Shown: positions 2,037 through 26,475 of the stretch, one piece after another
How positions within the stretch are numbered: position 1 is the stretch's first letter
Layout of the letters: each line of letters starts with the position of its first letter
Source: a virus
Direction: 5' to 3' (one strand)
Length of the DNA stretch: 27,426 bases
Virus record (IMG/VR): IMGVR_UViG_3300034111_000393
Location: 1 to 27,426 of that record
Made by a program: the position numbers and the translations under genes
Notes under the pieces: generated by a model
What the model saw: only the letters and a program-made list of their open reading frames with translations
Databases searched by the model: none
What the model was told of the DNA's origin: nothing

Positions 2037-2198
2037 ATGAGCAAAGCCGAACGCCTCCGTCAACTTGCCCTTCAATCCTATTGGGCCGCTGAAACCCCAA
2101 AGGAAGCAAAAATGGCGGGCATCTTAATTGATTTGTTTGCGCCAGACGTGCGCGACGATGACAGGCCGCTTCCGCGCGTGAAAGTGGTGTTTGCATGA
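2037..2198 (+). CDS. Small hypothetical protein between terminase and portal, 53 aa
   Basis: An ORF of 53 codons starts at ATG 2037, one base after the terL stop, and ends at TGA 2196-2198, overlapping the portal ATG (2195) as ATGA. The product begins MSKAERLRQLALQSYWAAET and ends with a basic, proline-containing tail (RPLPRVKVVFA). It has no membrane segment. The exact fit between two coupled genes argues that it is translated. I do not recognise a family. A structural or packaging accessory role would suit the position, but nothing in the sequence proves it. Confidence 0.6.
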   Translation: MSKAERLRQLALQSYWAAETPKEAKMAGILIDLFAPDVRDDDRPLPRVKVVFA

Positions 2199-4288
2199 GC
2201 GAAGCGCCCAAACGCAAAGCGCCAAAGATCGAAGGCTATGACGACGAGGCCTCGTTCATCAAGGAGGCGCGCGAGCGTTTCCAGCGCGCTGTAGACTTTG
2301 ACCGCGACAATCGGGATCAGGGGATTGAAGACTTGAAGTTCCTTGCCGGTGAGCAATGGGACGAGGAAGCGCAGGCGGCTCGCAAGGGTCGGCCCATGTT
2401 GACGATCAACACGCTTCCGACCTTTGTGGCGCAAGTGGTCGGTGACATTCGTATCAACCGCCCGGCAATCCGCATCCGCCCGGCTGAAGACGGCGACAAG
2501 GACCTGGCTGAAGTCCGCGAGGGCCTGATCCGCGCCATTGAGCGGGACAGCGATGCACAAGGCGTGTACGTCAACGCCGGGAACAACCAGGTTGCGTGCG
2601 GGATTGGTAACTTCCGCATTGGCCTCAAATACGCGACCGACGACGGCTTTGACCGTGACCTGATGATTGAGGCTATCCCGAACGCCTTTGCGGTGACTTG
2701 GGACCCTTACTCTACAGAGCGCACGGGCAAGGACGCCTCGCACTGTTTTGTCAGTGACATGGTTCCCCGTAAAGACTTCGAAGCCCGGTTTGATACCGTG
2801 CTAGACAGCAGCCTTGAAGTCCCGCTTCACGACGTAGACGGCTGGTACTCGCAGGACAGCGTTCGGATTACCGAATACTGGATCATGAAGACCTCGAAGG
2901 TTGATCTCGCGCTGCTGGAAGGCGGGCTTGTCGTCAAGGCTTCGGAAGTCCCGCAAGGCGTTGTTCCGATCCGCACGCGCTCCGCTGACGTCAAGTCGGC
3001 GTGCATGTATCTGATCAGCGGGACCCAGGTTCTCGACGGTCCCTATGAGCTACCGATTGACCGTCTGCCCATCATCCGGGTGCAAGGCTGGGAGGTGAAC
3101 GTTGGCGACCGTCGCATTCGTGGCGGTCTGGTCCGCAACGCGCGGGATAGTCAGCGGCTCAAGAACTATTGGCGCTCTGTGTCGGCTGAAATGCTGGCTC
3201 TAGCGCCGAAAGGCAAATGGCTGCTAGAGGAACGTCAGGAAGGCGATCAAGACGGGTTCCGCGATGCGGTCAACTCGGACGATAACGTCCTGACCTTCAC
3301 GGGGCCAAACGCTCCGCAGTTCATCGGCCCGCCGAACCTCAATACCGCTGTGCTTCAGGAATCAAACCTGAACTCGCAGGACATGAAGGATACGACCGGC
3401 CTTCACGATGCCAGTTTGGGCGCTCGCTCAAACGAGACGTCTGGCAAGGCCATCATGGCACGCCAGCGCGAGGGCGACGTTGCCACGTTCATCTATCCCG
3501 ACAACCTGCAAGCGGCGATCCGCGAAGGTGGCCGGGTTCTGAATATGCTGATCCCCACGGTGTTTGACACGGCTCGCACAATCCGCGTGCTGGGTGAAGA
3601 CGACAGCGTGAAGGTGAAGCGCGTCAACGATCCGAACGACCCGGAAAGCATTGACATCAATCGCGGCAAGTATGACGTTTCGATTGAGAGCGGCCCGTCC
3701 TACTCGACCAAGCGCGTTGAGGCGGCGGAAAGCATGATGCAGTTTGTGCAAGCTGTCCCGGCGGCGGCGTCTGTATCTGCTGACCTCATTGCCAAGGCCC
3801 AAGATTGGCCGATGGCGAACGACATTGCCGAACGGCTCAAAAAGGCCCTGCCTCCCGGTCTGGCGACCGACCCTGACGACGAGAAGACGCCAGAGCAACA
3901 GCAGGAAATTCAGCAGGCCATGCAAGCGGCCCAGCAACAGCAGGCCATGCAGCAACAGGACATGGACCTGACCATGCAGCTTAAGCAGGCGGCGGTTATC
4001 AAGGCGCAAGCGGAGGCTGAGAAGGCGGTTAACGAGGCGCAAGCCCCGCCTGAAAGCCCCGCAGAGCCCGACGAATTGGACGTGATGCTAAAGGTCGAGC
4101 AAGTCCGCAAAGCCAAGGCCGACGCGGACAAGGCCGAATGGGATGCAAAGCGCGCATCCGTTGGCCTGCTGGACGACATGCACAATCACAACATGAGGCC
4201 CGTCGAAGCCGCGATGGCGGAGCGGGACCTTGAAGACCGGATGAAGCCGCCTGAAATGGGCGAGCAGGAAACCGGCGACGACGATTAA
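2195..4288 (+). CDS. Portal protein, P22 gp1-like
   Basis: At 697 aa this is close in length to the P22 portal (725 aa), which forms the dodecameric DNA gate at one head vertex and docks TerL and gp4. Family features include the N-terminal segment EQWDEEAQAARKGRPMLTIN (about 51-70), the R/Q-rich wing, and the conserved DTTGLHDASLGARSNETSGKAI region (about 398-419). The C-terminus (about 565-680) is a long Gln/Ala/Glu-rich helix, like the barrel of P22-type portals. Order TerL-portal-scaffold-coat is as in P22-like phages. The ATG overlaps the preceding stop (ATGA). It is a confident call. Confidence 0.92.
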   Translation: MSEAPKRKAPKIEGYDDEASFIKEARERFQRAVDFDRDNRDQGIEDLKFLAGEQWDEEAQAARKGRPMLTINTLPTFVAQVVGDIRINRPAIRIRPAEDGDKDLAEVREGLIRAIERDSDAQGVYVNAGNNQVACGIGNFRIGLKYATDDGFDRDLMIEAIPNAFAVTWDPYSTERTGKDASHCFVSDMVPRKDFEARFDTVLDSSLEVPLHDVDGWYSQDSVRITEYWIMKTSKVDLALLEGGLVVKASEVPQGVVPIRTRSADVKSACMYLISGTQVLDGPYELPIDRLPIIRVQGWEVNVGDRRIRGGLVRNARDSQRLKNYWRSVSAEMLALAPKGKWLLEERQEGDQDGFRDAVNSDDNVLTFTGPNAPQFIGPPNLNTAVLQESNLNSQDMKDTTGLHDASLGARSNETSGKAIMARQREGDVATFIYPDNLQAAIREGGRVLNMLIPTVFDTARTIRVLGEDDSVKVKRVNDPNDPESIDINRGKYDVSIESGPSYSTKRVEAAESMMQFVQAVPAAASVSADLIAKAQDWPMANDIAERLKKALPPGLATDPDDEKTPEQQQEIQQAMQAAQQQQAMQQQDMDLTMQLKQAAVIKAQAEAEKAVNEAQAPPESPAEPDELDVMLKVEQVRKAKADADKAEWDAKRASVGLLDDMHNHNMRPVEAAMAERDLEDRMKPPEMGEQETGDDD

Positions 4289-4354: not shown

Positions 4355-5215
4355 ATGACCGACCAAACCCAAGCCCCGGTGGAAACCGATGGCACCGACA
4401 CCGCTGCCGTTCTAGCGGCGTTGGAAGGCGACAAGACCTATCTGGCTGACGACAAGGCCCCGGAAACCCCGGAGCCCGAAGCGGAGCCAGAAACCCCCGG
4501 CGACGATGCAGCCGCCGAACCTGCCGAGACTGAAGGCGAGAAGCCCAAGGTCAAGCGGTCAGTTCAAGAACGCATCGATGAGATGGCAACGCAGAAACAC
4601 GAGGCTTTGCGAGAAGCTGAGTACTGGAAGGCGAAAGCCCTACAGGCGCAACCCGCTCAACCCGCCCCAGAGGCGCAACAGATACCGCAAGGCGACGGCA
4701 GACCAAACCGCGCCGACTATGACGACGACTTTGCATTTATCGAAGACCTGACCGACTGGAAGGCATGGCAAGCGGCGAACCAAATGGTTCAACAGCAAAC
4801 CCAGACCCTACAGATTAAGGCGGTTGTCGAAACCTACCACACCCGCGCAAAGACGCTTTATCCCGAGGGCAAGCCCGCTGGATTGGTGGCCTTTGAAAAG
4901 GTGCAACAGGTTCCCGAAGCGGTGAATGAGATTGTCGGCACGTCGGACATCGGCCCGATGATTGCCGCCCACCTTGGCGACAACCCCGCAGAACTGGACC
5001 GGATCAATGGGCTAAGTCCATTCCACCAGGTGCGCGAGTTGACACTCCTTGAAGCACGCCTGACGCCCGCAACCGGGTCGAAGGTTCCCCCAAAAACCGC
5101 CACGGATGCGCCCGAACCTCCGCCAACCGCGCGAGGCTCAAACGGTCAGTTCAAGGTTGCCGGTGATACCGGAGACTTTGCGGCCTTTGAAAAGCAGTAC
5201 CGCATTCCGGGCTAA
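4355..5215 (+). CDS. Capsid scaffolding protein
   Basis: The 286-aa product sits exactly between portal and coat, the place of P22 gp8 (303 aa). Its composition fits a scaffold: a very acidic, Pro/Glu-rich N-terminus (about 1-65), the helix KRSVQERIDEMATQKHEA (about 67-84), a Gln/Ala/Pro-rich linker, the segment DDDFAFIEDLTDWKAWQAA common in phage scaffolds, and a C-terminal tail ending FEKQYRIPG. Scaffolds direct coat assembly and leave the prohead before or during packaging. There is no protease motif. The ribosome binding site before ATG 4355 is weak, but no other start fits better. Confidence 0.85.
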   Translation: MTDQTQAPVETDGTDTAAVLAALEGDKTYLADDKAPETPEPEAEPETPGDDAAAEPAETEGEKPKVKRSVQERIDEMATQKHEALREAEYWKAKALQAQPAQPAPEAQQIPQGDGRPNRADYDDDFAFIEDLTDWKAWQAANQMVQQQTQTLQIKAVVETYHTRAKTLYPEGKPAGLVAFEKVQQVPEAVNEIVGTSDIGPMIAAHLGDNPAELDRINGLSPFHQVRELTLLEARLTPATGSKVPPKTATDAPEPPPTARGSNGQFKVAGDTGDFAAFEKQYRIPG

Positions 5216-5244: not shown

Positions 5245-6477
5245 ATGGCTAACGCATATGCAACCCCGAAGGTCTACGCCAACGTCGGCCTAGCCCTCCT
5301 CAAGAACCAACTTGTCATGGCGAAGTTGACCGACAGCGAATCCGTGAACAAGGAGTTTGTCCCCGGCGTCGGCACGACCGTTTATGTGAAGCGCCCGCCC
5401 GAGTTCACCATCCGCGACGGCGCTGCGGCGTCCAGCCAAGATGTGGTCGAGGGCGAAGTGGCCGTGGTCTGCGACAAGCAGAAGGGCGTCGACGTTCAGT
5501 TCACCGGCTACGAAGCCACGACGAACATTGACCAGCTTCTGAAGTCGAAAATCATCAAGGCGGCGATGACGCAAATCGCTTCCCAGATTGACGGCGACCT
5601 GATCGACCAGACCAAGTTCTTCAACAACTCGGTCGGCACCTACGGAAACACCATTTCCACGGTTGCCGGGTTCTTTGCGGGTCCTCAGCGTCTCGACGAA
5701 ATGGGCGTTCCCATGTCGGACCGAAACGCCATCATGACCCCGGCTGACGGCTACGCTCTGGCTGCGACCTTCACGGGTCTGGCCGCGCTGGCTGGCGACA
5801 CGGCAATCAGTGCTCTGCAAAAGGCGAAAATCCCGATGCTCGGCAACACCCAGCCGTACATCACGCAGACCATCCCCGCCATCACGACCGGCGACCGCGT
5901 GACCACGACCACGCTGGTCAACGGCGCGAACCAGAACGTCACCTATGCGTCTTGCCGCACGACCTACACGCAGTCACTTGTCTGCGACGGTCAAGCGTCC
6001 AAGACCTACAAGGCTGGCGAGAAGTTCACGATCAACGGCGTCAACGCGGTCAACCCCCGCACGAAGGCCGATCTCGGTTATGCCCGTCAGTTCACCATCA
6101 TGGCCGACGCTACGTCTGCCGGCGGTGGCGGCGACGTGACCCTGACCATCTCGCCCCCGATCATCACCTCGGGTGCGTTCCAGACCTGCACGGCGGCTCC
6201 GGCCAACAACGCGCAGCTGACCCACCTTGGCGCTCTGTCCACGACCTACCGCTTCAACGCCGCTTTCCACAAGTCGGCGATCAAGCTGGTCAACGTGAAG
6301 CCGCCGAACCCCTACTCGGGTGAAAGCGATTACGCCACCGACCCCGACACCGGGATCAGCGTTCGTTACTGGCGCTATTCGGACGGAACCAACGACCTCC
6401 ACAATCACCGTTGGGACGTCTACTACGGCGTAAAGAACGTGGACACCCGTCTGGGAACCACGATGTTCGGCGCCTAA
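5245..6477 (+). CDS. Major capsid (coat) protein, P22 gp5-like
   Basis: This 410-aa protein is near the P22 coat length (430 aa). It begins MANAYATPKVYANVGLALLK and contains the P22-type sequence GTTVYVKRPPEFTIRDGAA (about 43-61), then a TNIDQLLKSKIIKAAM helix. A central inserted domain follows (about 220-330), then the conserved end YATDPDTGISVRYWRYSDG ... WDVYYGVKNVDTRLGTTMFG. It has the HK97 fold typical of this family and builds the icosahedral shell with the scaffold. Codon use is strongly biased to C-ending codons, as expected of the most abundant virion protein. A hairpin terminator lies just downstream. Confidence 0.93.
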   Translation: MANAYATPKVYANVGLALLKNQLVMAKLTDSESVNKEFVPGVGTTVYVKRPPEFTIRDGAAASSQDVVEGEVAVVCDKQKGVDVQFTGYEATTNIDQLLKSKIIKAAMTQIASQIDGDLIDQTKFFNNSVGTYGNTISTVAGFFAGPQRLDEMGVPMSDRNAIMTPADGYALAATFTGLAALAGDTAISALQKAKIPMLGNTQPYITQTIPAITTGDRVTTTTLVNGANQNVTYASCRTTYTQSLVCDGQASKTYKAGEKFTINGVNAVNPRTKADLGYARQFTIMADATSAGGGGDVTLTISPPIITSGAFQTCTAAPANNAQLTHLGALSTTYRFNAAFHKSAIKLVNVKPPNPYSGESDYATDPDTGISVRYWRYSDGTNDLHNHRWDVYYGVKNVDTRLGTTMFGA

Positions 6478-6543: not shown

Positions 6544-6783
6544 ATGGCTGTTCAATATCTCGGGGATAACCCCATCAATGGCGGTGTTTCGCTTGGTCAA
6601 GCCGCCACCTCGCTCATTAGCCTCTATGGCGCCACTCCCGTCGCCCAGCGCAGCTCGACCGTGCTGGCGACCTCGACTATCTCCGCTTCCAGCTACGTGA
6701 CTGTCGGGTCTAACCTGACCGCCATCATCCTGGAGCTGGTCAACGGCCAAATCGCCCTCGGCACGCTGCGGACGACTGCCTAA
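6544..6783 (+). CDS. Small virion-associated protein, 79 aa
   Basis: The first gene after the coat terminator has a good ribosome binding site (AAGGGA, about 8 nt before ATG). The 79-aa product contains SLISLYGATPVAQRSS (about 23-38). A similar FYG.TPV.Q motif is frequent in small phage head or fibre proteins, often before a helical C-terminus; here the end is ILELVNGQIALGTLRTTA. A capsid decoration or head-fibre-like role fits the place next to the coat gene, but this is inference from motif and position. No catalytic residues are visible. Confidence 0.6.
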   Translation: MAVQYLGDNPINGGVSLGQAATSLISLYGATPVAQRSSTVLATSTISASSYVTVGSNLTAIILELVNGQIALGTLRTTA

Positions 6784-7326
6784 GTGACTGCGGAAGCGCC
6801 CTCGGTTGCCTCTGTTCCGGGGGCGCTTCTTCACGTCGGGTGCGGCTATAGCCCGCTGCCTGATTTCCTCTCATTCCTGAACTACAGCGAAACCCGTCTG
6901 GACATCGACCCGCGATGCAAACCCGATGTGGTCGCGTCAATGACCGATCTGGGGGACATTGGCACCTTCGATCTGGTGTTCTCGCATCACTCACTGGAAC
7001 ACCTCGCGCCGCATGACGTGGGTGTTGCGCTAAAAGAGTTTTGCCGGGTGCTTAAGCCTAACGGCGCGACATTGGTGTTTGTTCCAGACCTTGAAGGCGT
7101 CGAGCCTACGGATGAGGTTTTATTCGTCAGCCCGGCTGGCCCTATAGCGGGTTTGGACCTGTACTATGGGCTAAGGTCGGCCCTGTTAGATCAGCCCTAC
7201 ATGGCGCACCGGACGGGCTTTGTGAGCAACACCCTACGCGCTGCGCTGGAAAGCGCGGGCTTTGCGCGGGTGGTGATCCAAAGGCTTCCCGACCATAACC
7301 TGCTGGCGATTGGATACGTCCAGTGA
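6784..7326 (+). CDS. SAM-dependent methyltransferase (class I, Methyltransf_11-like)
   Basis: The 180-aa product starts at GTG 6784, immediately after the preceding stop. It carries class I methyltransferase landmarks: motif I LLHVGCGYSPLP (15-26), the acidic loop LDIDP (39-43) that binds the SAM ribose, FDLVFSHHSLEHL (62-74) and FCRVLKPNGATLVFVPD (86-102). The end HRTGFVSNTLRAALESAGF matches the Methyltransf_11 fold. Such enzymes methylate small molecules, sugars or proteins; no DNA methyltransferase motif (NPPY or PC) is seen. It overlaps the next gene, a glycosyltransferase, as GTGA, so the two probably act together, for example in making an O-methylated glycan. The substrate is unknown. 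Confidence 0.85.
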   Translation: MTAEAPSVASVPGALLHVGCGYSPLPDFLSFLNYSETRLDIDPRCKPDVVASMTDLGDIGTFDLVFSHHSLEHLAPHDVGVALKEFCRVLKPNGATLVFVPDLEGVEPTDEVLFVSPAGPIAGLDLYYGLRSALLDQPYMAHRTGFVSNTLRAALESAGFARVVIQRLPDHNLLAIGYVQ

Positions 7327-8024
7327 AGGTTGCGCTTTGCACGCCAACGCTTGACCAACCGCTTCCCGCCTACGTCAAGGCAATGGAAGCGTCACTGCCC
7401 ACGCTGAAAGAGGCGGGGATTGACTACACGCTGCTGATCGAGGTGGGTTGCCCTTACATTTCCGGGGCCAGGGCTACACTCCTCCGCAAAGCCTTAAATG
7501 CTGGGGCGGAGACGGTGGTTTTCATTGACCATGACCTGTCATGGAGGCCGGAAGACCTGCTAGACCTGATCCAGACGCCGGGCGAGGTTGTCGCGGGTGT
7601 CTATCGGTTCAAGAAGGATGACGTAGAGTATATGGGCACGCTGGCGCTTGATAGCGACGGCAGGCCGATAGGCAGAGCGGCGGACGGAACGAACACCCTG
7701 GTATTGAACGCAGAGCGCGTCCCCGCCGGGTTTATGAAAATCACCCGATCCGGGGTGGAACGGTTTATCAGAGCCTATCCGCACCTTTGCTACGGCTCGC
7801 CGATTGCCCCCCATGTTGACCTGTTCAATCACGGGGCGTTTGAGGGCGTGTGGTGGGGTGAAGACTACGCCTTTTCTCGCAACTGGCTGGCTTGTGGCGG
7901 GGATTTGCTGGTTTTGCCCGATCTAAGCCTAACCCATCACAGCGCGACCGCTGAGTTCCCGTTTAATCTGCACCAGTACCTTATGCGCCAGCCGGGCGGC
8001 GCGTTAGCGGAGGCGGCATCATGA
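7323..8024 (+). CDS. Glycosyltransferase, GT-A fold
   Basis: The 233-aa protein starts at GTG 7323, overlapping the methyltransferase stop. It has the GT-A pattern: beta-strand start MKVALCTPTL (1-10), ARATLLRKAL with a donor-site arginine (R50), the metal-binding DxD motif FIDHD (D69, D71), WWGEDYAFSRN (E180/D181, the usual ED acid pair) and a late LTHHS (H205/H206) that can complete the metal site. It should transfer a sugar from a nucleotide donor. Its place between coat and gp4 genes suggests a virion protein or host surface glycan as acceptor, but this is inference. There is no membrane segment, so it should act in the cytoplasm. Confidence 0.85.
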   Translation: MKVALCTPTLDQPLPAYVKAMEASLPTLKEAGIDYTLLIEVGCPYISGARATLLRKALNAGAETVVFIDHDLSWRPEDLLDLIQTPGEVVAGVYRFKKDDVEYMGTLALDSDGRPIGRAADGTNTLVLNAERVPAGFMKITRSGVERFIRAYPHLCYGSPIAPHVDLFNHGAFEGVWWGEDYAFSRNWLACGGDLLVLPDLSLTHHSATAEFPFNLHQYLMRQPGGALAEAAS

Positions 8025-8611
8025 CTATGCGTGACACCCTGACCGCTGCAATCCGCATGATCGGAGTGCGGGCGCTGTACGACACGCCGGACGAAGTAGA
8101 GATGAACTTGGCTCTTGAATCCTTCCAGAGCATGATCGGCACCCTGCCCAAAGTTCGCCTGACTGACGTGCTGGTGGATGCGGACTACACCGCCAAAGAG
8201 GACGAGCGGATATTCAACACAACCGGCGCACCCGTTCTCATTACCCTGCCTGATACGATAACCGACCCGATCACTGGCGTTGAACGTCCGCCTCGCAACG
8301 GGGCGATGGTGGTGGTCGCGGTGACGGGTACGCGGCATATCTACATCTCCGAACTAGGCGCATGGAAAACGGCAACCGGCCTGACGCTGGAAAGCGAACA
8401 ACCTTTTGGCCCTGAGCATGAACAGGGATTGAGGGCCATGCTTGCGGTGCGGATTGCGCCGGAATTGCAGCGTCCGAATGTCCCTGATTGGGTGGTGTCA
8501 ATGGCTGAAGCCGGACGGCGCACCATCCGCCAGCGGTTCCTGCAAACGTACAAGATAACAACGGACCCGCTCCTGCTTGACCGCTTCCAGAGACACGGGG
8601 TGTATGTCTGA
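8021..8611 (+). CDS. Tail accessory factor / head-tail connector, P22 gp4-like
   Basis: The product is 196 aa; P22 gp4 is 166 aa. Gp4-type proteins bind beneath the portal and begin the short tail. Typical features are the helical start TLTAAIRMIGVRALYDTPDE (5-24), the ALESFQSMIGTL segment, and the conserved GPEHEQGLRAMLAVRIAPEL (about 131-150). Start ATG 8021 overlaps the glycosyltransferase stop and has GGAGG 7 nt upstream; ATG 8027 is a second possibility. The modification cassette thus lies between coat and connector genes that are usually close neighbours. Moderately confident at family level. Confidence 0.75.
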   Translation: MTMRDTLTAAIRMIGVRALYDTPDEVEMNLALESFQSMIGTLPKVRLTDVLVDADYTAKEDERIFNTTGAPVLITLPDTITDPITGVERPPRNGAMVVVAVTGTRHIYISELGAWKTATGLTLESEQPFGPEHEQGLRAMLAVRIAPELQRPNVPDWVVSMAEAGRRTIRQRFLQTYKITTDPLLLDRFQRHGVYV

Positions 8612-9015
8612 TGGCCTTGAAATACTCCACCACGCTCCGCAATGCCCAGCTTGACGCCATCACCACGGCAGTCGGTACGTCGGGTATCCTGCGGATTTAC
8701 AGCGGGACCCGTCCAGCCAACGTCGCGGCGGCTATCACCGGCACGTTGCTTGCCGAATGTGTTTGCAACGCCTCGGCCTTTGCGGCGGCGGCTTCGGGTG
8801 GCGTGCTTACGGCCAGCGCCATCGCAGACGATAGCAGCGCCAACGCGAGCGGCACGGCGAGCCACTACCGGCTTTTCCGTTCGGACGGCACTACGGCGGT
8901 CATTGACGGCGATGTATCCACCTCTGGCGCTGACCTGAACCTTGACAACACGTCGATAAATTCTGGTCAGGTGGTCAGCATTACCAGCTTCACCATTACG
9001 GCTGGAAATGCCTGA
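8611..9015 (+). CDS. Small beta-rich phage structural protein, 134 aa
   Basis: The 134-aa product begins MALKYSTTLRNAQLDAITTA and continues with LRIYSGTRPAN, a beginning seen in a widespread phage protein family of unknown exact role. The rest is Ser/Thr/Ala-rich and beta-like (HYRLFRSDGTTAVIDG, VSITSFTITAGN). There is no signal peptide, membrane segment or catalytic motif. It is coupled to both neighbours: its ATG overlaps the gp4-like stop and its own stop overlaps the next ATG. It is most likely a minor virion component in the head-tail or fibre region. Confidence 0.7.
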   Translation: MALKYSTTLRNAQLDAITTAVGTSGILRIYSGTRPANVAAAITGTLLAECVCNASAFAAAASGGVLTASAIADDSSANASGTASHYRLFRSDGTTAVIDGDVSTSGADLNLDNTSINSGQVVSITSFTITAGNA

Positions 9016-12004: not shown

Positions 12005-12225
12005 TGAAAGCTGTGCGCCGTTACCTTGAGAACGTCGTCGCTGGCCTTTCGCACCTGATTAACGCCCTGACGGGTGGTGACGCGCGGGTTTCATGGTCGG
12101 CAAGGCTTGGGGCAGAAGCCCATAACGGCAACGTGCTTTCCGCTGTGCTGGCCCTTATAATTGACACCGTGCTTTTCAGCCGGGGCCATTGCTACGAACA
12201 CGCGCAAGAGGAGGGGTTGATTTGA
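12004..12225 (+). CDS. Small conserved phage protein, 73 aa
   Basis: ATG 12004 overlaps the previous stop (TGATG) with AAGGGTGG just upstream, so it is preferred over the in-frame GTG at 11995. The 73-aa product, MKAVRRYLENVVAGLSHLIN ... HCYEHAQEEGLI, has an amphipathic N-terminal helix, then ALTGGDARVSWSARLG. This layout (YLxNVxxxLxxLxNALxGGD ... S.R.G) is familiar from small proteins found in many phages; their role is not known to me. A Cys/His pair near the end (HCYEH) is notable but too small for a clear metal site. Confidence 0.6.
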   Translation: MKAVRRYLENVVAGLSHLINALTGGDARVSWSARLGAEAHNGNVLSAVLALIIDTVLFSRGHCYEHAQEEGLI

Positions 12226-13646
12226 CGGCTGTCCCTTTCCTGCTGTCATCCTCGGCCCTGTCCAACTTCGCCCCGATCAGGACCACGAATGTTCACGTAG
12301 AGGCTAACCCGGCCTCGCAGGCGGCTCCTGTGGCCCTTGTAGCGCGTCCCGGCCTGTCTACCTTCGCCAGTGTCGGAACCGCCCCCACGCGCGCCCTGTG
12401 GCAGAAGCAAGGGCTATTCGAGAACGCGGCGCTGATCGTCGCTTCGGGTGAGGTCATCTCGCTATCGGCTTCGGCTGTCCAGAACACTTACAGCGGAACG
12501 AGCATTGCCGGGGATGATCTGGTCGAGATCGACGGTCAGTTGGACGCTGACTATAACTCCGAAGCCTACATCGCCAACGGTTCGGCGTTTTACAAGGCGG
12601 TCTACAACCCGCTGACCGCGACCCGTTCAGTGGTACAAATCACCTTCCCCGATGCGTTCAACGCGGGTGCGACCTCGGTTGGCTGTCTGTCGGGCTATGT
12701 GCTTGCGACTCAAGCGGGAAGCGATGCGGTCTATTACCAAATCCCCGCCGCCTCGACGTTTACGGCCCTGCAATTCGCCTCCGCTGAATATGCGCCGGAC
12801 GCGAACGTCTGTATCCGGGTTGTGGGCGACATAGCCTGGTTGATGGGCGAAACGACCTTAGAAGGCTGGCGCGCTACGGGTAGCTCAACATCGCCCCTAG
12901 AGCCTGTCGGCGGCCTGAAATTTGACGTCGGCTGTAAGACCAAGGCCGCAGCGGTCAATTGCCGTGGCACGCTGGTGTTTGTGGATTCGGACGGTTCGGT
13001 TCGGATGACTTCGGGTGGGGCTCCTGAAACCATCTCCGAAAAGGGCCTTGCGGAGCAAATCGGCAACACCGCTGTCGGTGATATACGCGCCTCGTTCTAC
13101 ATCAAGGATCAGCGCCCGATCTATCGCCTGACCTTGGCGGCGAACGGGTCATGGGATTACGACCTGTCGGCGGGTAAGTGGACGCAAGCCAACTCCTACG
13201 GCTACGCCTACGCGCGCGCTCACCTGTTTGCCAATATCGGCGATATGGTGCTGGCTGCGGATTCCGCATCGAACGCCATCTGGACCGTTGACCCTGACAG
13301 CCGCCTTGACGTAGCGGAGACGTTCACGGTTGAATTTCACGCGCTTCTAGAAGTGAAAGAGGGCCGCGCTCCGATTGGCAATCTGGAACTGGATTGTCTG
13401 CTAGGCGATGCACCACACACCGGCCAAGGCTCCGCACCGCTGATCAGCCTGCAAATCAGCAAGGACGGCGGATATACATTTGGCCCCATCCAATACCGTA
13501 GCCTTGGGGTAACTGGCTCCCGCCTAACCGCTCCGCGCTGGAACGCCTTGGGTGACGCGGTGGCTCCGTTTGGGGCTCTGTTCAAGTTTCAGGTATCCGA
13601 CCCGGTTGGCCGTCGCTTCTCGGGTGCTCGCATCAATGTCCCTTAG
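12222..13646 (+). CDS. Tail hub / DNA stabilization protein, P22 gp10-like
   Basis: The 474-aa product (P22 gp10 is 472 aa) belongs by layout to the phage stabilisation family that plugs the tail under gp4 and carries the spikes. It begins TAVPFLLSSSALSNFAPI, has beta-propeller-like repeats, and ends with the typical ISLQISKDGGYTFGP ... LGVTGSRLTAPRWNALG ... FKFQVSDPVGRRFSGARINV. The frame is open from 12189, but TTG 12222 has an excellent AGGAGG (12209-12214) 7 nt upstream and overlaps the previous stop, so it is the better start. Length and C-terminal motifs make the call good. Confidence 0.8.
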   Translation: MTAVPFLLSSSALSNFAPIRTTNVHVEANPASQAAPVALVARPGLSTFASVGTAPTRALWQKQGLFENAALIVASGEVISLSASAVQNTYSGTSIAGDDLVEIDGQLDADYNSEAYIANGSAFYKAVYNPLTATRSVVQITFPDAFNAGATSVGCLSGYVLATQAGSDAVYYQIPAASTFTALQFASAEYAPDANVCIRVVGDIAWLMGETTLEGWRATGSSTSPLEPVGGLKFDVGCKTKAAAVNCRGTLVFVDSDGSVRMTSGGAPETISEKGLAEQIGNTAVGDIRASFYIKDQRPIYRLTLAANGSWDYDLSAGKWTQANSYGYAYARAHLFANIGDMVLAADSASNAIWTVDPDSRLDVAETFTVEFHALLEVKEGRAPIGNLELDCLLGDAPHTGQGSAPLISLQISKDGGYTFGPIQYRSLGVTGSRLTAPRWNALGDAVAPFGALFKFQVSDPVGRRFSGARINVP

Positions 13647-19819: not shown

Positions 19820-20344
19820 ATGCTTGAATGGCGCGATATTCCGGGGTTTGAAGGTGCTTATCAAGCAAGTGCTTGCGGGCAAATCCGTTCGCTTGAACGG
19901 ACGGTGATCGGAGCGCGAGGCGTGGCGGTTTACGTCCCCGGCTGCATCAAAACCCAGCGAATTGATCGGGATGGTTATCCCGTCGTTGGTTTGTCCAAGG
20001 GCGCTGGAAAAATCCAAACCTACGGCGTCCATCCATTGGTTTTGGCGGCGTTTTCCGGCCCGAAGCCGCATCCAATGTTTCAAGCGTGCCACAACGACGG
20101 CAACCGCGCAAACAGCGCCATCAGCAACCTTCGCTGGGCATCTCCCGCAGAGAACTACAACGACCGCCGCGCTCACGGAACGGATGCGGGCGGCGAGGGA
20201 AACCCGGCAGCAAAAATGACGTGGGCAAAGGTGCGGCTACTTCGAAAAGTCGCAAGCCAGTTCACCCAAAAAGAACTGATGGCTTATTTCAACATGTCGC
20301 AGCCGCAGGTTTCCAAAATAATCCTGCAACAGTCGTGGGTATAA
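19820..20344 (+). CDS. HNH homing endonuclease with NUMOD4 and HTH domains
   Basis: The 174-aa product is a free-standing homing endonuclease, a selfish element that cuts intron-like target sites in related phages. Domains in order: NUMOD4 DNA-binding module, EWRDIPGFEGAYQASACGQI (3-22) then RSLER; an HNH_3 nuclease, with VHPLVLAAF (H71), CHNDGNRAN (H91, N92) and ISNLRWASPAENYND (N103); and a C-terminal helix-turn-helix, TQKELMAYFNMSQPQVSKII (149-168). GAGG is 8 nt before the ATG. The 59-nt leader is AT-rich, with a TATCAT (19782-19787) that could belong to its own weak promoter. It lies between fibre genes and is probably a recent insertion. Confidence 0.9.
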   Translation: MLEWRDIPGFEGAYQASACGQIRSLERTVIGARGVAVYVPGCIKTQRIDRDGYPVVGLSKGAGKIQTYGVHPLVLAAFSGPKPHPMFQACHNDGNRANSAISNLRWASPAENYNDRRAHGTDAGGEGNPAAKMTWAKVRLLRKVASQFTQKELMAYFNMSQPQVSKIILQQSWV

Positions 20345-21161: not shown

Positions 21162-22079
21162 ATGCCGTCACCCACGATTAACCGGATATTACGCAGCAGT
21201 CGGGGCGGCACTGTTGTTCTGACCAGCGGGACAACGTGGACAGTTCCCGTAAACTTTAAGTCGCTGGTGTCCATTGAGGCCATTGGCCCCGGAGGCGCGG
21301 GCGCTGACGGGTTGCACCTCAGCTATTCCGGCGCGGGTGGCGGCGGCGGCGCTTACGCCAAGATTGTGTCGGCTGCGAATATCGCCGCAGGTAACGTCCT
21401 GACGATCCAGATTGGGGCGGGCGGCTCTGGCAACGCCACCTTTCTGCAAGACAACACCGCCACAACCGTTATCTCGGCGGCGGCGGGCGGCAACGCAGTT
21501 ACCACCACGGCGGGGGCTGGCGGCACGACGGCGGCTTCAACCGGATCAACCAAGTTTGCAGGCGGCGCGGGCGGCATCGGATCATTAGGTGGCGGGAACC
21601 AGCCCGGAGCTGGCGGCGGCGGCGCTGGCGGGCCAAATGGCACAGGCGCAACGGGCGGCGGTACTGGCGCGGGCGGTGCGGGAGGCTCTGGCGGCGGCGG
21701 GGCTGGCGGCGGCACTGCGGGCGTAAGCACTGTTGGATCGAATAACGGGTCTAACGGCGGAAACAACTTTTTTGGCACTGGTGGCGGCGCTGGGTCAACC
21801 AATGGCAGCGGACTTCCCGGAACCGCAGGCTCAAACGGAGGCGGCGGTGGCGGCGGTCAAGGTAGCGGCGGTGGGGCCGGGGGCGCGGGCGGCCCGGGTG
21901 GCACGGAACTGGCTGAGGGAACCGTTCAAGGCCCCGGCGGCGGTGGCGGTGGTGGCGGCGCGGACGCGGTAGCGGCGGGCGTGGGCGGTGCATACGGCGG
22001 CGGTGGCGGTGGTGGTGGCACTTACGGTGGCACTGCCGCAACTGGCGGCGCAGGCGTCATTGTTATTGTGTATCGTTAG
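21162..22079 (+). CDS. Polyglycine-rich phage adhesin-like protein
   Basis: The 305-aa product starts with a small beta module, GTVVLTSGTTWTVPVNFKSL (16-35), then SIEAIGPGGAGADG. A glycine-rich body (about 110-300) follows, in which Gly reaches more than half of residues in places. It ends GGAGVIVIVYR, the usual end of phage glycine-rich domains. Arrays of GGxGG repeats fold as stacked polyglycine-II helices in known phage adhesins (for example S16 gp38), with loops between runs presenting receptor contacts. Loops here include SLGGGNQPGA and NNFFGTGG. A receptor-binding tip or fibre cap is likely. The small gap to both neighbours indicates one transcript. Confidence 0.78.
   Translation: MPSPTINRILRSSRGGTVVLTSGTTWTVPVNFKSLVSIEAIGPGGAGADGLHLSYSGAGGGGGAYAKIVSAANIAAGNVLTIQIGAGGSGNATFLQDNTATTVISAAAGGNAVTTTAGAGGTTAASTGSTKFAGGAGGIGSLGGGNQPGAGGGGAGGPNGTGATGGGTGAGGAGGSGGGGAGGGTAGVSTVGSNNGSNGGNNFFGTGGGAGSTNGSGLPGTAGSNGGGGGGGQGSGGGAGGAGGPGGTELAEGTVQGPGGGGGGGGADAVAAGVGGAYGGGGGGGGTYGGTAATGGAGVIVIVYR
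21561..22065 (+). repeat. Low-complexity GGC/GGN coding tract
   Basis: The glycine-rich part of the adhesin is encoded by long runs of GGC, GGT and GGN codons, making degenerate GGCGGC-type repeats. Such tracts can expand or contract by slippage or unequal recombination, changing adhesin length. The minus strand shows long Pro/Ala/Arg-rich open frames here that are artefacts of this composition. Confidence 0.7.
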
Positions 22080-22090
22080 GGGCTGCTGAC

Positions 22091-24220
22091 ATGGCTGCAA
22101 AGCGCGGTTCAATTCTAAGCCTCCCCACTGTTGGACCCGGCGCAAGCTGGAACGGCACGGCTCTGTCAGGCGGAACCCCGCCGACAGACCCCACTAGGAC
22201 CACAGCCAAGCCTGCGATCCATTGGCTTGTGCCATCTGAGCTACGGTTTATTAGCGGAAACAACATCCCAATTGGCGTCGATGCGGATGCTAACGGCGGC
22301 GTTCAGCGCGTAGATTTCTGGGTTGAAGGCCGGATTTTTAGTGTCTACGCGCCCTACTTCTACCGCGACACAGACGCCAGCGGACGGCCTCGGTCCCGGT
22401 TTGGCTATTGGATTACGTTAAACGCGGCCTCCTTTACATCGGTTAGCACAACTGGCGAGGCGCGGATTTATGCCACCGCTTACCCGAACGACCCGACCAT
22501 GCAGGCCCGGACAATCGGCATTACCTCCGGCGTCCCGGCAACGGACAATCTCCGGGGTGACTACGCCCTGACGGTCTATCCGCGCGCTGCGGCAAACGAT
22601 TGGGTGAAGACCGTCGCGCCAACAGGGGCAGACTACACCACGATTGCGGCGGCAATAACGGCGGCGCGGGCGGCAACGGCAGAAGCGCCATTGATCACCA
22701 TTACGGCGACGGGTTCTTACGAACTCACCAGCGATGCCAACAACTACGCCAACGGAAAGGGCTTCTGCACGATAACCGCTTCAACCGGTGTGACGGCCAC
22801 CCTGGGACGGGCGGCGGCGTTCGCACCTTCAACGCCCGCTAGTTGGCCTTGGCTGCCGGGCTGGGACGGCATCGAGTTCCGGGGATCGGGCATCGTCTTT
22901 GATCAGCGCAACTGGTCAACGATCAACACGACAACCAAGCCCGCGTGGTTCAACGGCTGCAAGTTCACTAACAGCATCGGCACGCTCTACAGCTACTATT
23001 GGAACGGACTCATTCATCCCGGCTTTGGCGCGAATAACTCCAACTACTGGGATGACGTGACGGTTGAATACAACGCGCGCGGGAGCGCTTTAGGCAACCA
23101 AAGATATGTGCGCGGATGCACCATCAATCAGTATGCTGATGACCTCTTTACGGGGACGCACTATGTAGCAAATAACTATGTTCGATATTACGAAATTGCG
23201 TTTTTCATCGGCACTACTGAAGACCTCGTTACTGGCACTGTTACAAACTTCACCGGCCTGCGGATCAACGGGCCTGCAAACGCCACCGTGAGCAAGACAG
23301 CGGCGGATGCCCAAGGCGGTAATTTGCTCCTTCGGGTCAGCGGATCGACTGTGGCCACCATCGCGCTAGGTTACTATGGCAACGACACCAACCCGACAAT
23401 TGATGCTGTCGTCACGGCGATCAACGCCTACGGCAATGGCTGGTCAGCCAGCGCACAGAATAGCCGGGGAGCGATGCGCCCATCGGCGTTAGGCGCGACA
23501 ACTGGACACGCAGCCAGCTTTACGGATTTGGTGGCTACACCAACAATTAACTTGAACGCGGGCGAAGATTATCACGCTGATTGGTGGCAGGGGTACACGG
23601 GCGGCGTAACCCGTCAGAACGTCATTATTCGTGACAACACAACGCGGGACTCAGGCTTACAAGCAACTGCAAACGCAACTATATTTTTGGACGATGATGT
23701 AGGTACATTGTACGCGGATTTTATTATAAAAAACAACGTTTGGACGGGTCGCTACGGTGTAACAAGATTGGGGACAGACCAGCTAAGTCATGTTGTCTAC
23801 GACAACAACTCTAACGAAGCTCCAATATCACGCAGGCAATCACCAGCGGGTGATCAAATCTATTCCAGCTACAAGAACAATGCATCGGCGTTGTTGGCTT
23901 ACAATGCGGCGGGTACATGGGTTGGTGATGCACCTTGGATTAACAATTCATACATAATTGCCAACGGAAACGGCGCAATTTCGGGCGGGTCCAACTCTGG
24001 TAACTTCACAATCACCAAAGACGGAAACGCAACGACCTATTGGAAACTGTTGTTTGTGGATTATGAAAACGGCGACTATCGCCCGGTGACGGCGGGAACC
24101 TTGCTGTCAAACCTGAAAACCAAGATCAATAGCTTTGACGGCACGGGCATAGTCTATTCCACCTCTGACGTTGTGGGCGCGCGGTCCAAAAACGGCGGCG
24201 CACCGTCGTACCCGTTTTAG
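22091..24220 (+). CDS. Tailspike-like protein with right-handed beta-helix
   Basis: The product is 709 aa. The N-terminal 170 residues form beta domains (HWLVPSELRFISGNNIPIGV; RVDFWVEGRIFSVYAPYFYR) with Ig-like features. From WVKTVAPTGADYTTIAAAIT (about 173-192), the classic start of a pectin-lyase-like parallel beta-helix, it runs through coils rich in N, G and aromatic residues (GWDGIEFRGSGIVFDQRN; VTRQNVIIRDNTTRDSGL; ADFIIKNNVWTGRYGV) to about 640, then a short C-terminal region. Aspartates in LNAGEDYHADWWQG (about 490-503) are candidates for an active site, but no specific lyase or hydrolase can be named. It is probably the capsule- or LPS-binding spike. The segment about 23640-24010 is AT-richer than the rest. 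Confidence 0.78.
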   Translation: MAAKRGSILSLPTVGPGASWNGTALSGGTPPTDPTRTTAKPAIHWLVPSELRFISGNNIPIGVDADANGGVQRVDFWVEGRIFSVYAPYFYRDTDASGRPRSRFGYWITLNAASFTSVSTTGEARIYATAYPNDPTMQARTIGITSGVPATDNLRGDYALTVYPRAAANDWVKTVAPTGADYTTIAAAITAARAATAEAPLITITATGSYELTSDANNYANGKGFCTITASTGVTATLGRAAAFAPSTPASWPWLPGWDGIEFRGSGIVFDQRNWSTINTTTKPAWFNGCKFTNSIGTLYSYYWNGLIHPGFGANNSNYWDDVTVEYNARGSALGNQRYVRGCTINQYADDLFTGTHYVANNYVRYYEIAFFIGTTEDLVTGTVTNFTGLRINGPANATVSKTAADAQGGNLLLRVSGSTVATIALGYYGNDTNPTIDAVVTAINAYGNGWSASAQNSRGAMRPSALGATTGHAASFTDLVATPTINLNAGEDYHADWWQGYTGGVTRQNVIIRDNTTRDSGLQATANATIFLDDDVGTLYADFIIKNNVWTGRYGVTRLGTDQLSHVVYDNNSNEAPISRRQSPAGDQIYSSYKNNASALLAYNAAGTWVGDAPWINNSYIIANGNGAISGGSNSGNFTITKDGNATTYWKLLFVDYENGDYRPVTAGTLLSNLKTKINSFDGTGIVYSTSDVVGARSKNGGAPSYPF

Positions 24221-25187: not shown

Positions 25188-25369
25188 TCGATAACGCCCT
25201 CCCAATGGTCGCAGCGGTCCTGCACCGTGCCTATCGGGAGAACCGCCGCGCCTACGTCGAGGAAGCGTCACGGTTGATCCCTACAATGTCACCGTGGCCC
25301 AAGCGGCGAAGTTCCAAGCGAAGACCCATCCCCGGCGTCATTGACGCCCCCACGGACAGCGAGGGCTAG
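25184..25369 (+). CDS. Small basic hypothetical protein, 61 aa
   Basis: The frame starts at TTG 25184, overlapping the endolysin stop, and ends in a TAG sharing a base with the next GTG. The product, IDNALPMVAAVLHRAYRENR onward, is helical at first (VAAVLHRAYRENRRAYVEEA) and then basic and proline-rich (PWPKRRSSKRRPIPG). The ribosome binding site is weak, so reinitiation from the endolysin stop is needed; ATG 25205 is an alternative start. I do not recognise it. Tight packing between two coupled genes supports its reality. The adjoining phosphoesterase may be a partner. Confidence 0.5.
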   Translation: MIDNALPMVAAVLHRAYRENRRAYVEEASRLIPTMSPWPKRRSSKRRPIPGVIDAPTDSEG

Positions 25370-26475
25370 TGCCTACACCTGCACGAACGGACGAGGGGCC
25401 GCGTTCGCGCCGTTCCGTCAAAGAGCGTATTGAGGCCAAACTACGCCAAGGCCATAGGCCAAGAGGCATGACGGGCAACGGTAACGGGGCCGTTGCGGAA
25501 GCGGCGATTGAAGCCGTGGCAGAAGGCGAGTTCGCCACCGTTGGCGCGTTCAAGTCGGCCATGCTGGACTTGCCGCCGGAATGGGAACCGGATTGGTCAC
25601 TATACAGGGCGCAACGCTACCAGCAACCCGTTCCACTGTCGGTGCTGACACCGGCCCTAGAACCCTTCCCGATGGCCCCTAGCGGCACGCCACAGCGCAT
25701 TCTAGTCATCGGCGACCTACACAATGACCCGCGCCACGAACATCGCCTGAAGGTGCTAACGTGGGCGGCGCGCATGGCAAGCGAACACCGCTACGACCGG
25801 ATCATCCAGGTTGGCGACTGGTCGACCTTTGACAGCGTGAACCAGCACGACGACAACGCTACGGTGGCCGCAAGGTTCAAGCCATCGGTGAAGGTCGATC
25901 TGGAAAACCTCACCCAATCGCATCAGGCCTTCCGACGCGGGATGGCGGAAGACTATCGCCCCAAGCTCGACTTTCTGCTAGGCAATCACGAGAACAGGCT
26001 AGAGCGGTTTGAAAATGCCAACCCGGAAAGCGTCGGAACCTTTACTCTTGCTCGCGACGAGACTTTCGCCCAATTCGGCTGGCGGTCACGACCGTACGGG
26101 GAACTGTTTTACGTCGAAGGGGTCGGTTTTACACACCATCCGACAAACGGCGCAGGGCGAGCTTACGGTGGAAAAACGGGGCCTCAGCGCGCCGCGAACG
26201 AAAGTACCGTCCCTGTAGTCAGCGGTCACACTCACAGACGCCAAGTCCACGATAGCCCGAAGATTGGCCCGGTTGACGTCATCTCAATGGTTGAGGTCGG
26301 ATGCGGCCTTTTCTGGGGCGAAGTCGAATCCTACGCGCGTCATGGCTTAACGGGCTGGTGGCACGGCTTGGTCCCGATGACAGTGCAAGGCGGCGTCATC
26401 ACTGATCTTGAGTTCAAGTCCATGCTGACAATCCGTGACCGTTACAGCGATGACGGCGGCGACGTGAGGTCATAG
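25369..26475 (+). CDS. Calcineurin-like metallophosphoesterase with N-terminal extension
   Basis: The 368-aa product starts at GTG 25369, sharing a base with the preceding TAG. The two-metal phosphoesterase core begins at about 108, with motifs in order: ILVIGDLHND (D116, H118), IQVGDWSTFDS (D150), FLLGNHENR (N206, H207), GFTHHPTN (H256/H257) and VVSGHTHRRQ (H287, H289). All metal ligands appear intact, so it should hydrolyse phosphodiester or phosphomonoester bonds. The first 100 residues form an uncharacterised extension, with a basic helix RSRRSVKERIEAKLRQGHRP, which may bind nucleic acid. It sits between endolysin and spanin genes. The substrate is unknown: nuclease, nucleotide phosphodiesterase and other roles remain possible. 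Confidence 0.87.
   Translation: MPTPARTDEGPRSRRSVKERIEAKLRQGHRPRGMTGNGNGAVAEAAIEAVAEGEFATVGAFKSAMLDLPPEWEPDWSLYRAQRYQQPVPLSVLTPALEPFPMAPSGTPQRILVIGDLHNDPRHEHRLKVLTWAARMASEHRYDRIIQVGDWSTFDSVNQHDDNATVAARFKPSVKVDLENLTQSHQAFRRGMAEDYRPKLDFLLGNHENRLERFENANPESVGTFTLARDETFAQFGWRSRPYGELFYVEGVGFTHHPTNGAGRAYGGKTGPQRAANESTVPVVSGHTHRRQVHDSPKIGPVDVISMVEVGCGLFWGEVESYARHGLTGWWHGLVPMTVQGGVITDLEFKSMLTIRDRYSDDGGDVRS

What the first reader, a model, noticed from the sequence alone, without database searches (positions are those of the whole stretch)
6784..8024. Methyltransferase-glycosyltransferase cassette between coat and connector genes
A GTG-started SAM methyltransferase and a GT-A glycosyltransferase overlap by 4 nt and sit between the coat and gp4-like genes. 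Virion glycosylation with associated methylation is known for some mycobacteriophages. A cassette placed among P22-like head genes suggests a capsid or spike protein is decorated with a methylated sugar, perhaps to evade binding or change surface adhesion. I know of no described system of this form in P22-like phages, though I could not search.
Basis: partly seen in the sequence, partly recalled or inferred. Interest (0 to 1): 0.68.

Follow-up and report, generated by a model that had tools for sequence, protein, structure and literature searches.

The report
Phage capsid-protein sugar-tagging gene cassette
Next to its shell gene, this virus of bacteria carries genes for a sugar-adding enzyme, a methyl-adding enzyme and a small protein that always travels with the sugar-adding enzyme, which suggests that many uncultured viruses sugar-coat their own particles through a dedicated small surface protein.

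Summary
A class I SAM methyltransferase (MT, 6784-7326) and a GT-A glycosyltransferase (GT, 7323-8024) are translationally coupled (4-nt overlaps) between a P22-type coat gene and a gp4/tail-adaptor-like gene. The AlphaFold2 model of the GT (pLDDT 94) best matches STIV A197 and collagen protein-glycosyltransferases, and keeps DxD, GED and HH motifs.

In about 450 fetched loci, GT tracks g79 rather than the coat: every g79 locus with room downstream has a GT (133/133), and in L175 g79+GT moved together away from the coat. P22-like phages lacking GT keep the coat and sometimes the g79 N-terminal and YGxxP modules, but lack the C-terminal module carrying an Arg and a near-invariant Ser/Thr. MT occurs only beside g79+GT.

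Best explanation: GT puts a sugar on g79, a probable capsid-surface accessory protein, and MT methylates that glycan. Acceptor, sugar and virion location are inferred, not shown. Mycobacteriophages such as Corndog are the functional precedent, without detectable sequence homology. I file it as a new variant of a known kind (phage virion glycosylation), widespread in uncultivated P22-like phages.

The parts
5245..6477 (+). P22-type major coat protein, context gene and rival acceptor
   Evidence: PF11651 E 1.7e-35; phrog_283 4.5e-78
6544..6783 (+). g79: 79-aa small protein, proposed capsid-surface accessory protein and glycan acceptor (variable N-term, YGxxPxxQR motif, S/T-rich stretch, C-terminal helix)
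   Evidence: no Pfam/PHROG family; adjacent to GT in 133/133 non-redundant loci with room; AF2 gives only a C-terminal helix 51-72, pLDDT 61
6649..6651 (+). g79 Arg36 codon (invariant Arg of YGxxPxxQR), predicted GT-recognition residue
   Evidence: 209/209 GT-associated C-terminal modules; absent in the no-GT forms
6673..6675 (+). g79 Ser44 codon, near-invariant hydroxyl residue, best candidate O-glycosylation site
   Evidence: 98% Ser/Thr in 209 modules (179 S, 26 T)
6784..7326 (+). SAM-dependent methyltransferase (MT), class I
   Evidence: PF08241 5.9e-10; motif LHVGCGxxxLP and LEH conserved in 20 relatives
7323..8024 (+). GT-A glycosyltransferase (GT), soluble, 233 aa
   Evidence: AF2 pLDDT 93.9; Foldseek PDB top hit STIV A197 E 6e-10, then COLGALT1 and LH3; phrog_1574
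7527..7535 (+). GT DxD motif (D69, D71), predicted metal/nucleotide-sugar site
   Evidence: invariant in 42 aligned relatives
7857..7865 (+). GT GED motif (G179-E180-D181), predicted catalytic base region
   Evidence: invariant in 42 aligned relatives
7935..7940 (+). GT HH (H205-H206), predicted metal-binding histidine
   Evidence: invariant in 42 aligned relatives
8021..8611 (+). gp4-like/tail-adaptor-like protein, translationally coupled to GT by ATGA overlap
   Evidence: sequence; family profile hits 59 loci downstream of GT and the annotated tail adaptor of MW202573

Best explanation
g79-MT-GT is a self-contained virion-glycosylation cassette. The phage makes a small capsid-associated protein (g79) whose variable N-terminus anchors it to the particle and whose C-terminal module (YGxxPxxQR + Ser/Thr-rich stretch + helix) is the substrate. 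The soluble GT-A enzyme uses a host nucleotide sugar and a divalent metal to glycosylate that module, most likely O-linked at the near-invariant Ser/Thr (Ser44 here), with the invariant Arg36 as recognition element. The MT, present in a subset of the phages, methylates the attached sugar (or an outer residue), capping or masking it. Shown here: gene identities, the GT-A fold, conserved motifs, obligate g79-GT pairing, MT only with GT, and tracking of the C-terminal module with GT. Inferred: that g79 is in the virion, that it is the acceptor, the linkage and the sugar, that MT acts on the glycan, and any benefit (adhesion, protection from proteases, or hiding surface epitopes).
For: GT fold and motifs: AF2 pLDDT 93.9; Foldseek top hits STIV A197 and the protein glycosyltransferases COLGALT1 and LH3; DxD, GED and HH invariant in 42 relatives. 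Pairing: of 149 non-redundant g79 loci, all 133 with >1.6 kb downstream room carry GT, and the 3 without GT lack room; g79 and MT loci were also recruited by their own sequences. All 67 newly fetched MT loci contain GT. In L175, g79+GT sit together between TerL and portal, about 3.4 kb before the coat. Two-copy phages also show g79-GT-g79-MT order. Natural control: coat-recruited P22-like loci without g79 lack GT and MT; no-GT phages keep related N-termini and sometimes YGxxP but never the Arg (0/14), versus 183/184 with close GT; restricted to loci recruited by coat or a non-QR relative, 18/18 versus 0/14, Fisher p 2e-9. GT-linked modules are richer in Ser/Thr (0.33 vs 0.24, p 4e-6) with one column 98% Ser/Thr. 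Recurrence with distant enzymes: MW202691 has a YG protein (QQSVTNTTTTTATTT) directly before a distant GT; L408 has a YG protein followed by a distant GT and a distant MT. MT-GT 4-nt overlap in 69 of 80 non-redundant pairs. Precedent: Corndog O-MT and GTs in structural genes, capsid/tail-tube glycosylation cited; STIV A197 essential, its coat protein glycosylated.
Against: No biochemical or mass-spectrometry evidence. g79 has no recognised family and a poor model (pLDDT 61), so its presence in virions is argued from gene position. Phylogeny and linkage inflate the association tests; the 14 no-GT loci fall into about 5 sequence clusters at 80% identity, one of them a spurious ORF. Distance correlations do not single out g79: GT-g79 partial r 0.16, GT-gp4 0.16. 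Distant GT relatives sit in other contexts (replication genes of phiM12; primase region of HTVC027P), so the wider fold family is not virion-specific. L056 has GT but lacks the Arg. Nothing here distinguishes sugar from protein methylation by MT.
Confidence: 0.57

Rival explanations
1. Same chemistry, different acceptor: GT glycosylates the major coat protein (or the tail spike), and g79 is only a neighbour exchanged in the same recombination unit.
For: The cassette is usually next to the coat. In mycobacteriophages capsid and tail-tube proteins are the modified ones. Physical linkage alone can produce g79-GT co-occurrence; distance correlations do not favour g79 over gp4.
Against: Phages with the same coat family lack GT. 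g79+GT moved away from the coat together in L175. The Arg-containing C-terminal module of g79 tracks GT presence. GT distance barely follows coat distance (rank r 0.17).
Confidence: 0.2
2. MT is not a sugar methyltransferase but modifies g79, coat or another virion protein directly, in parallel with glycosylation.
For: Class I MT without a substrate-specific family match beyond Methyltransf_11. Some g79 C-terminal types go with MT (SVSTN 18/0, THTTT 18/2).
Against: All 67 newly fetched MT loci contain GT whereas GT often occurs without MT, as expected if MT needs the GT product. Similar O-MT + GT groups occur in Corndog.
Confidence: 0.2
3. GT and MT act on host surface glycans or metabolites (receptor masking, superinfection exclusion) or on phage DNA bases.
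For: Distant GT relatives sit among replication genes in phiM12 and HTVC027P. Phage GTs can modify LPS or DNA (general knowledge).
Against: Placement inside the late head operon between coat and tail adaptor; pairing with a small structural-region protein; soluble GT-A rather than a membrane Gtr-type enzyme; the profile search of 398 Hyphomicrobiales genomes found the GT in only 2, so it is not a common lysogenic conversion gene there; no DNA-hypermodification genes noted in the window.
Confidence: 0.08

Closest known systems
Mycobacteriophage virion glycosylation (Corndog gp35-gp38, Che8, Myrna; Freeman et al. 2023, PMC4351075, PMC11600133, PMC12363180)
   Same: Phage-encoded glycosyltransferases with an O-methyltransferase among virion structural genes; proposed or shown to modify virion proteins
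   Different: Phages of actinobacteria, with several GTs; capsid and tail-tube proteins are the acceptors; no detectable sequence similarity (searches find no mycobacteriophage); no dedicated small partner protein reported in what I read. Weak fold similarity to Gp87 of phage Ardmore only.
STIV A197 (PDB 2c0n) and glycosylation of the STIV major capsid protein B345
   Same: Top Foldseek hit (E 6e-10, prob 1.0); small soluble stand-alone viral GT-A; essential, with glycosylated coat protein (PMC10551542)
   Different: Archaeal virus with double-jelly-roll capsid; 16% identity; no MT partner known to me; acceptor of A197 itself not proven
Collagen glycosyltransferases COLGALT1 and LH3 GT domain
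   Same: Next-best fold matches; GT-A enzymes that glycosylate proteins
   Different: Large eukaryotic multi-domain enzymes acting on hydroxylysine; 12-14% identity
Small capsid decoration proteins and head fibres of tailed phages (phage L Dec, phi29 gp8.5)
   Same: Small gene near the coat gene; presumed anchor plus exposed part
   Different: No sequence family shared with g79; none is reported, in what I read, as a dedicated substrate of a neighbouring phage GT

Membership tests
GT-A glycosyltransferase | GT-A (Rossmann-like, nucleotide-sugar binding) fold | tested here: met
   AF2 model pLDDT 93.9 and Foldseek prob 1.0 to A197, COLGALT1, LH3
GT-A glycosyltransferase | Conserved DxD metal site and acidic catalytic residue | tested here: met
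   D69/D71, E180/D181, H205/H206 invariant in 42 relatives
GT-A glycosyltransferase | Transfers a sugar from a nucleotide donor | not testable with these tools
   needs enzyme assay
Pfam Glycos_transf_2 (GT2) | Score above Pfam gathering cut-off | tested here: not met
   16.2 bits vs cut-off 23.3 for the window protein; not filed as a GT2 member, only as GT-A-like
Class I SAM methyltransferase | Methyltransf_11 domain with SAM motif | tested here: met
   40.1 bits vs cut-off 21.2; LHVGCG conserved
Virion glycosylation cassette (mycobacteriophage type) | GT and MT genes inside the virion structural gene region | tested here: met
Virion glycosylation cassette (mycobacteriophage type) | Homology to the Corndog/Che8/Myrna enzymes | tested here: not met
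   tblastn of GT, MT and a distant GT in 50,697 phage records finds no mycobacteriophage; the Corndog record could not be fetched for a direct comparison
Virion glycosylation cassette (mycobacteriophage type) | Sugar covalently on a virion protein | not testable with these tools
   needs MS of virions
Capsid decoration / head-fibre protein (for g79) | Known decoration-protein family match or fold | tested here: inconclusive
   no Pfam/PHROG hit; low-confidence model
Capsid decoration / head-fibre protein (for g79) | Present on the virion surface | not testable with these tools
   position between coat and tail adaptor only

The most novel reading that the evidence does not exclude
A dedicated enzyme-substrate pair: a modular, horizontally exchanged small capsid-surface protein whose C-terminal glycosylation domain travels with its own GT (and optional methyltransferase), used across hundreds of uncultivated P22-like phages as a plug-in surface-glycan system, with one Ser/Thr site and an Arg recognition residue.
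Probability: 0.45. Interest if true: 0.76.

Novelty: new variant of a known kind. Interest (0 to 1): 0.63.

Why it matters
Glycosylated phage virions have been demonstrated in only a few systems. Here one GT family, recognisable by sequence, is found beside the coat gene in hundreds of uncultivated P22-like phages, together with a specific predicted substrate and site. That makes phage-surface glycosylation testable with one small protein, one enzyme and one optional modifier, outside actinobacteria, and suggests that sugar-coating is a common, exchangeable trait of environmental P22-type heads.

Tried and rejected
Sequence search for a solved GT homologue: none; only the fold search worked. 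g79 structure: low confidence, not used for a fold search. Distance-correlation (mirror-tree-like) test for g79-GT co-evolution: weak and no better than GT-gp4, so not used as support. First count of the Arg position was off by one column and was redone. S/T richness versus MT presence: no difference (p 0.42). Arg glycosylation (NleB/EarP-like) considered because of the invariant Arg; not excluded, but S/T exchange at position 44 favours an O-link. DNA-base glycosylation and host seroconversion considered and ranked low. Head fibres of phage 7-7-1 checked: genes unknown, no help. Corndog record not in the collections under two accessions. Rfam and tRNA scans of the window: nothing.

Full report
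Observation. The window (a 27,426-base IMG/VR virus record) is a P22-like late region on the + strand: TerL 728-2035, portal 2195-4288, scaffold 4355-5215, coat 5245-6477, a 79-aa gene 6544-6783 (g79), MT 6784-7326, GT 7323-8024, gp4/tail-adaptor-like 8021-8611, a structural protein 8611-9015 (phrog_3758) and an Hc3/stabilisation-like protein 12189-13646. MT starts with GTG right after the g79 stop; MT/GT and GT/gp4-like overlap by 4 nt. MT is a clear Methyltransf_11 protein. The GT is below the Pfam cut-off alone, but its relatives hit Glycos_transf_2 (42 of 43), and its model (pLDDT 93.9) is a GT-A fold closest to STIV A197, then COLGALT1 and LH3. DxD, GED and HH motifs are invariant in 42 relatives.

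The overlooked partner. GT relatives were fetched from IMG/VR (264 pattern matches, 263 confirmed, 80 kept). Their gene order is nearly always coat - g79 (one or two copies) - [MT in 34] - GT - gp4-like. g79 has a variable N-terminus, a YGxxPxxQR motif, a Ser/Thr-rich stretch and a C-terminal helix. Searching with g79 or MT instead of GT gives the same picture: all 133 non-redundant g79 loci with enough downstream sequence carry GT (this pool includes the GT-recruited loci), and all 67 newly fetched MT loci contain GT. MT position varies (g79-MT-GT, GT-MT, g79-GT-g79-MT). In L175 the g79-GT pair lies between TerL and portal, far from the coat. So GT travels with g79, not with the coat.

Natural controls. 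Searching with the coat recovered mostly P22-like loci (72 of 79 new ones) with neither recognised g79 nor GT (some of these contigs end soon after the coat). Between coat and gp4 they carry small proteins that share g79's N-terminal modules (MALPxxGxGYQxGDGN..., MPNTKPIGVAYEDQ...) but have other C-termini. Some keep YGxxP but have K/Q-A, Q-P and so on instead of QR, and these lack GT. Over 206 non-redundant loci, close GT goes with the Arg in 183/184 and no GT with the Arg in 0/14; in loci not recruited by GT or QR patterns it is 18/18 versus 0/14. Distant GTs give a mixed picture (2 of 8 with Arg). In 209 GT-linked modules the Arg is invariant and a position eight residues further in the window protein (Ser44) is 98% Ser/Thr with S/T exchange. 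Those counts are not phylogenetically independent.

Recurrence. MW202573 has coat-g79-MT-GT-tail adaptor in a complete uncultivated genome. MW202691 has a Thr-rich YG protein directly before a distant GT and then the P22 tail accessory factor. L408 has coat, a YG protein, a distant GT and a distant MT, then three more YG proteins. The same triad thus recurs with diverged enzymes. GT distances barely follow coat distances (rank r 0.17 against 0.47 for coat-gp4), as expected for a mobile cassette.

Mechanism. Shown: enzyme classes, fold, conserved motifs, obligate pairing, and tracking of the C-terminal module. Inferred: g79 is a capsid accessory protein with an N-terminal anchor and an exposed glycosylated C-terminal module; GT uses a host nucleotide sugar; MT caps the sugar. 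The wider GT fold family also occurs away from virion genes (phiM12 replication region; HTVC027P), so virion action rests on context. The direct co-evolution test was uninformative.

Known systems. Mycobacteriophage Corndog has an O-MT and GTs among structural genes (PMC4351075), and related papers cite capsid and tail-tube glycosylation (PMC11600133, PMC12363180). STIV A197 is an essential GT and the STIV coat is glycosylated (PMC10551542). No sequence homology to the mycobacteriophage enzymes was detected. No paper found here describes a glycosylation cassette in P22-like phages, but the library lacks many subscription papers. Hence: new variant of a known kind.

Carriers. The GT is rare in bacterial genomes (4 loci in genome contigs; 2 of 398 Hyphomicrobiales genomes), but Rhizobium ecuadorense CNPSO 671 carries a TerL-to-ejection-protein module with g79-type and GT, which makes experiments feasible.

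Noticed in passing
window 19820-20344: NUMOD4 + HNH_3 homing-type endonuclease inserted among the tail/fibre genes.
   Followed up: no
L408 1570-4192: Independent layout: coat, YG small protein, distant GT, distant MT, then three more YG small proteins before gp4.
   Followed up: partly
L230-L307, between coat and gp4-like genes (e.g. L250 6845-7024): P22-like phages without GT carry a conserved 60-70 aa protein (IYLRHPxHGTKVAxxExEAxxDExNGWxR) before gp4, apparently unnamed.
   Followed up: no
window 22091-24220: 709-aa protein with no PHROG or Pfam hit at the position expected for a tail spike.
   Followed up: no
window 25369-26475: Calcineurin-like phosphoesterase (PF00149 3e-6) at the right end of the late region.
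   Followed up: no
window 21162-22079: Extremely Gly-rich 305-aa protein with weak similarity to a tail fibre assembly family (phrog_863).
   Followed up: no
MK620894 (Streptomyces phage Kradal) 98110-98316: The YG-type small domain of L408 also matches inside a Streptomyces phage tailspike protein (E 2e-5), so the YG domain may be a general virion-surface module.
   Followed up: partly
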